DNA of 64,000 nt from Candidatus Hydrogenedentota bacterium. GTDB lineage: Bacteria > Hydrogenedentota > Hydrogenedentia > Hydrogenedentales > JAGMZX01. The first letter of the stretch is position 1; every line of letters starts with the position of its first letter. Shown piece after piece: positions 2,447-6,019 of this stretch. A program made the position numbers and the translations under genes. The notes below the pieces were generated by a model, which did no database searches, was not told where the DNA came from, and saw nothing but the letters and a program-made list of their open reading frames with translations. The stretch lies in assembly GCA_029556545.1 (NCBI GenBank), contig JAKQEQ010000074.1, positions 23,076-87,075 on the forward strand, written 5' to 3'.

Positions 2447-2920
2447 TCAGTTTACTGTAATACGCTTGCGCCGCGCCTTCGCCGCATCCGACTTGGGCAG
2501 GCGCACGCGAAGGACGCCGTGCCGGTAACGCGCGTTCGCCTTATCCGGTTCAATCTCGCAGGGCAGCGGACCCGCGCGGTAGAAACCGCCGTAGCTGCGC
2601 TCGCTGTAATACCGGCCGTCGCGTCGCTCTTCGCGCTCCGCTTTCTTTTCGCCCCGCAATACGAGACGCCGCTCCTCGACCTCGACCTTGAAATCCTTCT
2701 CGTCGAGACCCGGCAGTTCCGCCGTGACCAGCACCTCGTCGTCCGTCTCCGCGAGGTCCACCGCCGGTCCGCCGAGGTCCAGAACCGAGACCGGCCAATA
2801 GTCGCCGTTCCCGCCGTTCGGCCTGGTCCGGCGCGGCTGCCACCGGTCGAAGACGCGCAATACACGGTCGCGCAACCCTTCGAGCGAGTCTTTCCACGTC
2901 ATGGGAACCAGGCTGCTCAT
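2447..2920 (-). CDS. Hsp20/alpha-crystallin small heat-shock protein (third of operon)
   Basis: 157 residues, an ATP-independent holdase that keeps unfolded proteins soluble. The alpha-crystallin domain spans about residues 50-155, with AVDLAETDDEVLVTAELPGL opening it, the ERRLVLRGEK strand, and GVLRVRLPK near the end (the usual G-V-L-x-[IV]-x-[LI]-P signature). An AGGAGGT ribosome site precedes the ATG. It is the last of three Hsp20 genes on this strand, 43 nt after the second. Its loop carries a charged stretch (KKAEREERRDGRYY) typical of class A Hsp20s. Confidence 0.93.
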   Translation of the reverse strand: MSSLVPMTWKDSLEGLRDRVLRVFDRWQPRRTRPNGGNGDYWPVSVLDLGGPAVDLAETDDEVLVTAELPGLDEKDFKVEVEERRLVLRGEKKAEREERRDGRYYSERSYGGFYRAGPLPCEIEPDKANARYRHGVLRVRLPKSDAAKARRKRITVN

Positions 2921-2963
2921 GGTCCGTCACCTCCTTTGTCGTCATCAGACGCGGCCCCGTCGA

Positions 2964-3356
2964 TTACGAGGCCACGTCCACCTTGATCTTCTTCGGCTGC
3001 TTCGCGGCCACTTTCGGCAAGTGGACCGTCAACACGCCGTACTTCATCTCGGCGCGAATCTTCTCCTGGTCCACCGCGTCGCTGAGTTGGAACTGCCGGA
3101 AATACGGTCGCAGCTCAAACTCGCGAAGCAGCGCGTCGCCGTTCGCGCCCGCCTCCGGCGTGGCCTTGATCGTCAGCACGTCGTCGTGGACGTCAATGGC
3201 GACGCCCTCTTTGTCCACGCCGGGCAGGTCCACCACGACGGCGAGGCCTTCCTTCATCTCGAAGATGTCCACCGCCGGAATCAGCGTGCGCGCTTCCTCG
3301 CGCGTATCCGGCGCCGTCTGCTGTTCCGCCTTCATCGGTACGGTCTTCTCTTTCAT
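2964..3356 (-). CDS. Hsp20/alpha-crystallin small heat-shock protein (second of operon)
   Basis: 130 residues from the ATG at 3356, which has AGGAGG at 8 nt spacing; an in-frame GTG at 3365 overlaps that ribosome site and is not the start. The alpha-crystallin domain covers about residues 28-128 (ALVVDLPGVDKEG region and GVLTVHLPK). The end is rich in lysine (KQPKKIKVDVAS), as in archaeal/bacterial Hsp20s. The three paralogues differ clearly in sequence, so they are an old family expansion and could form mixed oligomers. Confidence 0.92.
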   Translation of the reverse strand: MKEKTVPMKAEQQTAPDTREEARTLIPAVDIFEMKEGLAVVVDLPGVDKEGVAIDVHDDVLTIKATPEAGANGDALLREFELRPYFRQFQLSDAVDQEKIRAEMKYGVLTVHLPKVAAKQPKKIKVDVAS

Positions 3357-3398
3357 GGGTAGCACCTCCTTCGTTCGTTCTCGTTTGACCGCCGCCGC

Positions 3399-3863
3399 TT
3401 ATTGCACCGCCACCGCGATCTGCTTCGGTTTCGCCTTCTCATGCTTCGGCAGCGTGAGCCGCAAGACGCCGTTCTTATACGCCGCCTGGACTTTGTCGCC
3501 GTCCACCTCGACCGGCAGCGTCAGCGTCCGCACGAACCGGCCCGCGCCCCGCTCGTTCCGGTGATACGCCTCCGGCTTCACGTCCGCGTTGATCGGCGAC
3601 TTTTCGCCCGATACCCGCAGCGTGTCCCGGAGCACCGAAATGTCCAGCGACTCGGGATCAAGCCCCGGCGCCAGCGCCTCGACGTATACGTTGTCTTTGT
3701 CCTCCCTGACGTTCATCAGGGGATAGGCCCGCGCCGCCGCGCCCGGCAGGAACGCGCTCCGCCACGTCGGCCAGCGGTTGCCGCCGAAGTCCTCGAAGGC
3801 GCGCTCCACCTCGCGACGCAAGGCGTCCAACTCGCGAAATGGGTCCCACGTCCTCAGTGTCAT
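3399..3863 (-). CDS. Hsp20/alpha-crystallin small heat-shock protein (first of operon)
   Basis: 154 residues from the ATG at 3863 (AGGAGG at 8 nt spacing). The open frame extends to 4094 but that stretch is leader DNA. It begins MTLRTWDPFRELDALRREVE, the usual Hsp20 N-terminal helix with WDPFREL. The alpha-crystallin domain ends GVLRLTLPKHEKAKPKQI. First gene of a three-gene Hsp20 operon whose spacings are about 42 nt. The leader carries a sigma-54-type element, so control may be by an enhancer-binding activator rather than by sigma-32. Confidence 0.93.
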   Translation of the reverse strand: MTLRTWDPFRELDALRREVERAFEDFGGNRWPTWRSAFLPGAAARAYPLMNVREDKDNVYVEALAPGLDPESLDISVLRDTLRVSGEKSPINADVKPEAYHRNERGAGRFVRTLTLPVEVDGDKVQAAYKNGVLRLTLPKHEKAKPKQIAVAVQ

Positions 3864-3941
3864 AGCCCAGTCCTCCTTTCTCTTCGCGCCGGGCCTCGCA
3901 CGCGCCCGGCGGTTGATCCATTGGTTGCCACGCTTGGGAAA

Positions 3942-3957
3942 AGCAAGCGCAATGCCA
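3942..3957 (-). promoter_or_regulatory. Putative sigma-54 (-24/-12) promoter of hsp20 operon
   Basis: On the minus strand TGGCATTGCGCTTGCT has the invariant GG and GC separated by exactly 10 nt, and ends TTGCT as in the sigma-54 consensus. It lies about 80 nt upstream of the first hsp20 start codon. No enhancer-binding protein gene is seen nearby. Confidence 0.5.
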
Positions 3958-4373
3958 GGGAAGAAGTGGGAGCATGGCTTGCAGCGCAACCCCTTGCGAA
4001 TAAAGGATTTATGGGCATTGATGGGCGAACCGCCGCCCCCGATGGCATCCTCGACCTCAAACCAGAGCCGTTTCGTCTTAGAACAGCAGGACAAAAGCGC
4101 TCTACTTTGAAGCGTTAGATGTTGATTGTGGGAGGGCTCACCCTCTTATTTGAAAAGGGGCAGTTGGAATCCCGCCTGCTCGAAGTGGCGGTCCGTCCCG
4201 AGGGCGTCGGTAACCCCCTGTTGCTCCATGACAACAAAGGAGATACAGTCCGTGAGGGACCATTCCTTGTCGTTGCGCCCGGCGAATAGCGCAAAGCCCG
4301 CGTCGAAGAGTTCGGACGAAGCCGGGATGATCTCTGTGTCAGGGTCGGAACGAAGCTGGCGTATGAGTTCGAC

Positions 4374-4382
4374 AAAGAGAGG
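4374..4382. repeat. Target-site duplication, left copy (AAAGAGAGG)
   Basis: Identical to the 9 bp at 4736-4744. If the element's terminal repeat is taken to start with AGGGTGC, the duplication is 6 bp (AAAGAG) and the remaining AGG is shared with the terminal repeat. Confidence 0.8.
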
Positions 4383-4735
4383 GTGCTGTTCTGCAATTAC
4401 CGCTGGAATGCCGGACTCTTGGCGGAGTCGCGGTCGAATCGTGACCTATGTTGCGGATAGCGCGGACGACTTGTTAGCGCGCTTTAGCGCGCTCCTCTTT
4501 GCACCCTGCTTTAGCAGGGGTGTAGGGGAATAGCCTTTCTCGCCGATAGGGCGCTTCAGCGTCGCTTTCCAGATGGCTTCAGCGCTGAAGCACTTGAAAA
4601 GCCGCGCTGAAGCGGGCTTTGGCGCAGGAGAGTCCTCGTTTCACCCCGCATGAATGCGGGTGCAAAGAGGAGCCCGCCGAGGCGGGCTAATCAGCCCCTG
4701 AGACGCCGCAGTCGGTAATAGCGGACCTGCACCCT
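4380..4735. mobile_element. MITE-like non-coding inverted-repeat element inside PIN toxin gene
   Basis: About 356 bp bounded by imperfect terminal inverted repeats of 23 bp. Left starts AGGGTGCTGTTCTGC and right (reverse complement) AGGGTGCAGGTCCGC; both end TTACCG and 19 of 23 positions match. A 6-9 bp direct duplication of toxin-gene sequence flanks it. It has no transposase or credible ORF, so it would need a transposase in trans. The centre is packed with GC-rich hairpins and a second set of inverted arms (4474-4690). Size, terminal repeats, duplication and lack of coding fit a miniature inverted-repeat transposable element; the parent IS family cannot be named from the ends. Confidence 0.8.
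4474..4690. repeat. Nested inverted arms with covarying hairpins
   Basis: Two 49-bp arms (4474-4522 and 4642-4690 reversed) each contain hairpin, CTCCTCTTTGCACCC, hairpin, GTG. The 15-bp core is identical in inverse orientation at 4492-4506 and 4658-4672. The flanking stems differ in sequence but stay paired: AGCGCGC/GCGCGCT versus AGCCCGCC/GGCGGGCT, and CCCTGC/GCAGGG versus CCCGCAT/ATGCGGG. Such compensation suggests selection on the folded form. It may be an element nested in the larger one, or its functional core. Confidence 0.7.
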
Positions 4736-4744
4736 AAAGAGAGG
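4736..4744. repeat. Target-site duplication, right copy (AAAGAGAGG)
   Basis: Second copy of the 9 bp found at 4374-4382, on the toxin 5'-half side of the inserted element. Confidence 0.8.
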
Positions 4745-4908
4745 TCGCATCCTCGCGCGCGCCAGAAGTGCGCCGAGTTCCACCAGAACATATTCCGTTG
4801 TGACAATCTCTTCGTCGTAGAGCCGGCCGAAATCCAACGCGCGCCCATGTCACCTATCCCGCGGATTGAGCATTGCCTGATAGAAGGACGTGTCCGCGAA
4901 AACGCCGC

Positions 4909-5142
4909 TCATTTCCCGTGCTCTTCCCGGAGATAGGCGTCATGGTTTTCCGACCAGTCCTCGGGCAGGTCTTCGGCCTTCCCGATGACGGAGGCGAGCC
5001 GATCGGCGAGGGGGATGCGCTTCCTTGCGGAGTCTGTCTTGGGGCTTGCGACGATCTCGACCCGGACCCGCGTCCCGTCCTCCAGGGGCGCTGGCTGGCC
5101 CAGAACGACAACCCCGTTCACCACGTGTCCTTCGTAGGGCAT
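4909..5142 (-). CDS. Antitoxin of a PIN-domain toxin pair (VapB/DUF104-like)
   Basis: 77 residues from the ATG at 5142, with GGAG 8 nt upstream; a GTG at 5157 would add five residues. It starts MPYEGHVVNGVVVLGQ, a beta-rich N-terminus like that of small antitoxins of the DUF104/AF2212 type, with a charged C-terminal tail (EDLPEDWSENHDAYLREEHG) that would wrap the toxin. Its TGA overlaps the toxin ATG as ATGA, the usual translational coupling of such pairs. The antitoxin frame is intact although the toxin is destroyed, so it is now an orphan. Confidence 0.75.
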   Translation of the reverse strand: MPYEGHVVNGVVVLGQPAPLEDGTRVRVEIVASPKTDSARKRIPLADRLASVIGKAEDLPEDWSENHDAYLREEHGK

Positions 5143-5165
5143 TCGTCTATACTCCACGATTTATA

Positions 5166-5481: not shown

Positions 5482-5742
5482 ATGCCAATTGTGAGTAGGT
5501 TTTTCGGGATCGCGATAGCGTTTTATTGGGAAGACCACCTTCCGCCGCCCTTTCACGCGAAATACAGCGGCGAGGAGGCGATGATCGATGTCTGTACCGG
5601 AACCGTGCTTCGCGGGAATCTGCCGCGTCGAGCACTCGGGCTGGTGAACGAGTGGCGCGTCTTGCACGAGGACCAGCTTCTCGATAACTAGGAGTGCGCA
5701 CGGCGGCGAGCGCCCTTGGTCTATATCGACCCGCTGGAGTAG
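5482..5742 (+). pseudogene. DUF4160 protein with in-frame amber codon
   Basis: The frame encodes MPIVSRFFGIAIAFYWEDHL, then PPFHAKYSGEEAMID and VLRGNLPRRALGLVNEW, the DUF4160 signature (conserved PPHFHA-like motif and LP.RAL..V.EW). A TAG at 5689-5691 interrupts LLDN-*-ECARRRAPLVYIDPLE. Family members usually have a tryptophan (TGG) at that place, so a single G-to-A change explains the stop, and the 17 codons beyond are still open to the TAG at 5740. The protein would be 69 residues instead of 86. DUF4160 proteins usually sit next to DUF2442 proteins in toxin-antitoxin-like pairs, as here. It may still be functional, since only the tail is lost. Confidence 0.75.
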
Positions 5743-5746
5743 ACCC

Positions 5747-6019
5747 ATGATACTGCACGTAGTCGAGGCGAGTTACGAACGCGATTACATCATCCGGCTC
5801 CGGTTCAACGATGGCGCGGAAGGGTATGTGGACCTCGCTGATGAATTGTACGGCGAAATGTTCGAACCCCTGAAGGACCCGGAGAAGTTCCGCGTCTTCC
5901 GGGTTGATCCCGAACTCAACACGATTGTCTGGCACAACGGCGCGGACCTCGCCCCCGAGTTCCTGCATGATCGCCTGCTGGTCCCGTTCCATACGTCCAT
6001 ACCGCCGGAACGGGCGTAG
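5747..6019 (+). CDS. DUF2442 domain protein
   Basis: 90 residues; the ATG follows GGAG with 7 nt spacing, 4 nt after the original end of the DUF4160 frame. Motifs YIIRLRFNDGAEGYVDLADE, FRVFRVDPELNTIVWHNGAD and LAPEFLH match the DUF2442 family (strand-rich fold ending in 'W.NG.D..P..L'). Members are usually the partner of DUF4160 in small mobile gene pairs that behave like toxin-antitoxin modules. The biochemical role is not known to me. Confidence 0.85.
   Translation: MILHVVEASYERDYIIRLRFNDGAEGYVDLADELYGEMFEPLKDPEKFRVFRVDPELNTIVWHNGADLAPEFLHDRLLVPFHTSIPPERA

What the first reader, a model, noticed from the sequence alone, without database searches (positions are those of the whole stretch)
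4146..4912. PIN toxin split by a MITE-like element with exact frame restoration
The toxin 5' half (4736-4912) and 3' half (4146-4373) join perfectly in frame when the DNA between the two AAAGAGAGG copies is removed with one copy, giving a 134-residue PIN protein with all expected acidic residues. The inserted DNA has 23-bp imperfect terminal inverted repeats (19/23) and no transposase. An intact antitoxin is left upstream, so the insertion would silence a toxin while sparing its antidote.
Basis: partly seen in the sequence, partly recalled or inferred. Interest (0 to 1): 0.72.

Follow-up and report, generated by a model that had tools for sequence, protein, structure and literature searches.

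The report
Small transposon inside broken VapC-like gene
A short non-coding mobile DNA element, of a kind moved by a known transposase found in related bacteria, has landed inside the toxin gene of a toxin-antitoxin pair; that gene also carries a premature stop, so the toxin is dead twice over while the antitoxin gene stays whole: a tidy but ordinary case of gene decay.

Summary
The insertion is real. In 17 of 20 relatives where both halves matched, and in 46 of 55 named database loci, the halves of the window's PIN gene abut exactly, with nothing between. The inserted DNA (core 354 bp) is multicopy: six copies in this genome, three full length. It has imperfect terminal inverted repeats, a near-perfect 8-bp target duplication and no transposase. 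The same ends bound complete 1.55-kb insertion sequences in relatives, encoding an ISKra4-family transposase, with exact 8-bp target duplications. It is therefore an ISKra4-type MITE. No such transposase was found in the window's own genome, so the copies look orphaned.

Two corrections. Second, the duplication is 8 bp with one mismatch (CAAAGAGA/TAAAGAGA); the exact 9-bp AAAGAGAGG match includes two bases of the element end.

The toxin belongs to a VapC-like PIN family whose nearest solved relative is VapC20. New member of a known kind; modest interest.

The parts
4909..5157 (-). Antitoxin gene, open, upstream of and overlapping the toxin start; the real start is probably the ATG at 5142-5140 (inferred from the MPY(E/K)GHV motif shared with paralogues)
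   Evidence: 82-aa ORF from GTG; 66% identical to the antitoxin next to an intact toxin in relative G009
4736..4912 (-). 5' half of VapC-like PIN toxin gene (59 codons), holding D7 and E45 of the PIN active site, with an in-frame TGA
4850..4852 (-). In-frame TGA stop at codon 21 of the toxin 5' half
   Evidence: intact relatives have a sense codon here
4381..4734 (+). MITE core (354 bp), GGGTGC...GCACCC, no transposase
   Evidence: six copies in the genome
4381..4403 (+). Left terminal inverted repeat
   Evidence: 18/23 to the right end; same type as ISKra4-family IS ends in L152, L153, L169
4712..4734 (-). Right terminal inverted repeat
4373..4380 (+). Left copy of the 8-bp target duplication, CAAAGAGA
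4735..4742 (+). Right copy of the 8-bp target duplication, TAAAGAGA (7/8 to the left copy)
4474..4522 (+). Inner 49-nt two-hairpin module (left copy), also dispersed in the genome and order without these ends
4642..4690 (-). Inner 49-nt two-hairpin module (inverted right copy)
4146..4373 (-). 3' half of the toxin gene (75 codons plus stop), holding D101 and D120 of the PIN active site

Best explanation
A non-autonomous element (MITE) with ISKra4-type ends inserted into the vapC-like toxin gene of a vapBC-type operon, duplicating 8 bp of target and shifting the reading frame (362 bp added, not a multiple of 3). Because the antitoxin lies upstream in the operon it stays intact, leaving an orphan antitoxin and a dead toxin. 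The element was presumably moved in trans by an ISKra4-family transposase, as encoded by full-length ISs with the same ends in relatives; the source is no longer seen in this genome. The toxin gene also has a nonsense codon upstream of the insertion, so it is a pseudogene on two counts, and the insertion may have hit an already dead gene. Shown: insertion, multicopy, ends, duplication, partner IS in relatives, stop codon, open antitoxin. Inferred: mobilisation in trans, loss of toxin activity, continued function of the antitoxin.
For: Six copies at different sites. Ends found only at those copies in this genome with up to 3 mismatches to the TIR. Same ends paired around 1549-1553-bp ISs with an ISKra4 transposase (NCBIfam NF033572, E 8e-61, 206.4 bits against cut-off 205) and 8/8 target duplications. 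Ends strongly enriched over the reversed-pattern control (G005 43+43 against 1+1, G014 24+16 against 0). Halves abut in intact relatives. PIN active-site columns conserved in both halves. Intact relatives match Pfam PIN above cut-off and VapC20 structures (E 2e-17). The element folds far better than shuffles as single-stranded DNA (z -6.4).
Against: No transposase able to move it was found in the window's own genome or the same-genus genome, so mobilisation is inferred from relatives. Beyond the ~24-bp ends the MITE shares no visible sequence with the ISs. The target duplication is 7/8, not perfect. The genome is a draft in 195 contigs, so a missing IS cannot be excluded.
Confidence: 0.93

Rival explanations
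1. The toxin gene was first killed by the nonsense mutation at codon 21 and the MITE is a neutral passenger that landed later in a pseudogene; the insertion did not silence anything. (This is a rival on the order of events, not on what the insert is.)
For: In-frame TGA upstream of the insertion; TGA is a working stop in this genome.
Against: Apart from the stop, both halves remain 61-63% identical to the nearest intact relative with no frameshift in either half, so decay is not advanced. Nothing here dates the two events relative to each other.
Confidence: 0.45
2. The insert is removed at RNA level or tolerated in frame (an intron, or a Rickettsia-palindromic-element-like in-frame insertion), so a protein is still made.
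For: The element is highly structured and register is exact across it.
Against: No Rfam match at gathering threshold, group I and II introns included; 362 bp is not a multiple of 3 and stops follow in the toxin frame inside the insert; the stop at codon 21 lies outside the insert.
Confidence: 0.02
3. The split is an assembly artefact caused by the repeated element.
For: Draft genome, 195 contigs; the element is a six-copy repeat.
Against: Both flanks belong to the same gene in exact register and carry a target duplication; copies differ by about 8-13%, so they are distinguishable.
Confidence: 0.03

Closest known systems
ISKra4-family insertion sequences (p-MULT 4 transposases of the Mutator superfamily; PMC3942029)
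   Same: Terminal repeats starting GGG, 8-bp target duplication; the full ISs with these ends in the same order encode an NF033572 transposase.
   Different: The window element has no transposase and shares only the ~24-bp ends with the ISs; its interior is palindromic repeats. Assignment to the ISAzba1, ISMich2 or ISKra4 subgroup was not tested.
Prokaryotic MITEs, including cases of genes inactivated by MITE insertion (review PMC10969869)
   Same: Short, multicopy, inverted ends, target duplication, strong secondary structure, insertional inactivation.
   Different: Here the hit gene is a VapC-like toxin with its antitoxin left intact, and the host is probably a Candidatus Hydrogenedentota genome with no source transposase detected.
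VapBC type II toxin-antitoxin systems; nearest solved relative VapC20 (23S rRNA endonuclease, 5wz4/5wzf)
   Same: PIN domain with D7, E45, D101, D120 columns; small antitoxin gene upstream overlapping the toxin start.
   Different: The window toxin is a pseudogene; the antitoxin matches no curated family above cut-off.

Membership tests
MITE | Short, without transposase, multicopy at unrelated sites | tested here: met
   Six copies, three full length (about 350-385 bp)
MITE | Terminal inverted repeats | tested here: met
   18/23 in the window copy, 20/23 in L002
MITE | Target site duplication | tested here: met
   8/8 in L002, 7/8 in window; 7/8 in L003 after shifting its start by 2 bp (read)
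MITE | Autonomous element sharing the ends | tested here: met
   1.55-kb ISs in G014, G037, G051; none in the own genome
MITE | Actual mobilisation in trans | not testable with these tools
   needs a transposition assay
ISKra4 family (partner IS) | ISKra4 transposase over the curated cut-off | tested here: met
   L152 206.4 bits against 205; L153 198.5, just below
ISKra4 family (partner IS) | Ends beginning GGG with 8- or 9-bp duplications in some subgroups (own knowledge of ISfinder, not checked in a source) | tested here: met
   L152, L153, L169 all 8/8
VapC / PIN toxin | PIN domain over Pfam cut-off | tested here: met
   Three of four intact relatives are over the PF01850 cut-off; the window's own halves on their own are not
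VapC / PIN toxin | Conserved acidic active-site residues | tested here: met
   D7, E45 in the 5' half; D101, D120 in the 3' half
VapC / PIN toxin | Open reading frame (working toxin gene) | tested here: not met
   In-frame TGA plus insertion: pseudogene of this family, not a working member
VapC / PIN toxin | Endonuclease activity of the family | not testable with these tools
   needs biochemistry

The most novel reading that the evidence does not exclude
The palindromic interior of this MITE is an independently moving module: the same inverted pair of 49-nt two-hairpin repeats forms the core of a second element family with different ends in the same genome, and occurs without either kind of end across the order. 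MITEs in this phylum may be assembled by capturing or exchanging such cores, with ISKra4 ends as one of several carriers.
Probability: 0.3. Interest if true: 0.45.

Novelty: new member of a known kind. Interest (0 to 1): 0.25.

Why it matters
It gives a clear, sequence-level example of a toxin-antitoxin operon decaying from the toxin side and leaving an orphan antitoxin, and adds an ISKra4-type MITE family in a poorly studied phylum. None of this is surprising in principle.

Tried and rejected
Genetic-code reassignment to explain the TGA: rejected, since TGA ends 16 of 46 long ORFs in the window. Intron or RNA element: no Rfam match. Full IS in the own genome: none by TIR, by transposase or by family profile. 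Promoter or terminator effect of the insert: scans found no site inside the element. A 6-bp and a 9-bp target duplication were considered; only 8 bp fits the ISs and L002 together. Anti-phage defence library: no match for the intact relatives. Papers holding both 'ISKra4' and 'MITE': two in the held library, neither about this judging by title and counts. L190 has 821 nt between matches to the two halves; not followed up, may be two paralogous genes.

Full report
What is there. On the minus strand of the window an open antitoxin frame (4909-5157) overlaps the start of a PIN-domain gene. That gene is cut in two: 59 codons at 4912-4736 and 75 codons plus stop at 4373-4146. A profile built from intact relatives hits the two pieces in different frames, positions 1-61 and 53-130 of about 132. 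Between them lies a 356-bp stretch with inverted ends.

Is it an insertion? Each half was compared separately with intact relatives. Of 20 relatives from the whole-genome search in which both halves matched one reading frame, 17 had exactly 0 residues between the end of the first half and the start of the second; the other three differed by -1, 2 and 4 residues. Of 55 named loci from a public genome collection where both halves matched, 46 had a distance of exactly 0 nt, 8 were within 9 nt, and one had 821 nt and was not pursued. No relative examined carries the 356 bp as ordinary coding sequence.

The 5' half has a TGA in frame at codon 21 (4850-4852). Intact relatives have sense codons there. 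TGA is an ordinary stop in this genome. So register across the insert is intact but the gene would not be open; the '134-residue PIN protein' does not exist as written.

What the insert is. It is multicopy in this genome: three full-length copies (window; C134:37696-38081; C100:56278-56626) and three truncated ones (aligned), 87-92% identical, with unrelated flanks. A pattern of its ends, allowing 3 mismatches, hits only these copies in this genome. Across 68 genomes of the phylum a broadened end pattern occurs in 34, strongly enriched over the reversed-pattern control in G005 (43+43), G014 (24+16), G003 (12+11) and G060 (11+8); single hits in other genomes are at the level of the control.

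The partner. In G014 and G037 the ends bound 1.55-kb elements with one long ORF; G051 has a third complete one. The G014 protein matches the NCBIfam ISKra4 transposase at 206.4 bits (cut-off 205); the G037 protein reaches 198.5, just under. All three ISs have exact 8-bp duplications if the element begins at GGG. In that frame L002 is 8/8, the window copy 7/8 (CAAAGAGA/TAAAGAGA), L158 and L154 7/8; L003 is 7/8 when its start is shifted by 2 bp (read by eye; the script scored the unshifted frame, 3/8). Of 182 mismatched left/right flank pairs none exceeded 6/8. The family is thus ISKra4, described as three lineages (ISAzba1, ISMich2, ISKra4) in PMC3942029. No transposase of this kind was found in the window's genome by protein or family profile, and the same-genus genome lacks both the MITE and the transposase. 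The copies here look stranded, with the reservation that the genome is a draft.

The toxin family. Intact relatives are PIN proteins over the Pfam cut-off, with invariant or near-invariant D7, E45, D101 and D120, all present in the window's two halves. Their profile finds VapC20, a 23S rRNA endonuclease, at E 2e-17. Two intact paralogues exist in the same genome (C157:8102-8320 and C18:40582-40791).

How it works. The antitoxin is upstream, so neither lesion touches it. Either lesion alone would end toxin production. Which came first is open: the stop may have made the gene a free landing site, or the insertion may have relieved selection. I put the passenger reading at 0.45. Insertional inactivation by MITEs is well documented (PMC10969869), and toxin-first decay leaving an antitoxin is what the biology of such operons would predict (own knowledge).

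The inner repeats. The element's core is an inverted pair of 49-nt two-hairpin modules. The same core, about 75% identical, sits inside a second family of about five elements in this genome whose ends look like GGTCTGTCGATTTA inverted repeats, and single modules are dispersed across genomes of the order. This modularity is the least ordinary part of the locus, and it was only partly followed up.

Noticed in passing
window 5482-6019 (+): A second toxin-antitoxin-like pair, DhiT-like DUF4160 and DhiA-like DUF2442, just upstream of the vapBC locus on the other strand; over the Pfam cut-offs but below the NCBIfam DhiT/DhiA cut-offs.
   Followed up: no
L007-L011 (C133, C192, C24, C34, C179): A second MITE-like family in the same genome, ends about GGTCTGTCGATTTA inverted, carrying the same inner palindromic core as the window MITE. 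In L010 the flanks look palindromic (CCGCTTGC / GCAAGCGG) rather than directly repeated.
   Followed up: partly
window 4474-4522 and 4642-4690; L040-L063: A 49-nt two-hairpin repeat (linker CTCCTCTTTGCACCC) dispersed in several genomes of the order, REP-like; no mobilising enzyme was sought.
   Followed up: no
G005 (2.8 Mb, 63% complete): 86 matches to the MITE/IS end pattern, the largest expansion seen in the phylum, but no matching transposase found in that incomplete genome.
   Followed up: no
L259 about 934-1250 (G000:C68): Another antitoxin of this family with only the first 30 positions of a toxin detectable next to it; antitoxins in L260, L261 and L263 have no toxin of this family detected beside them. 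Possible further orphan antitoxins.
   Followed up: partly
window 2447-4094 (-): Three small heat-shock (Hsp20-like) genes in a row next to the locus, judged by sequence only.
   Followed up: no
L068 1082-1105 (G048:C329): An end of the same type lies at the end of an ORF that looks like the N-terminal part of a tyrosine integrase.
   Followed up: no
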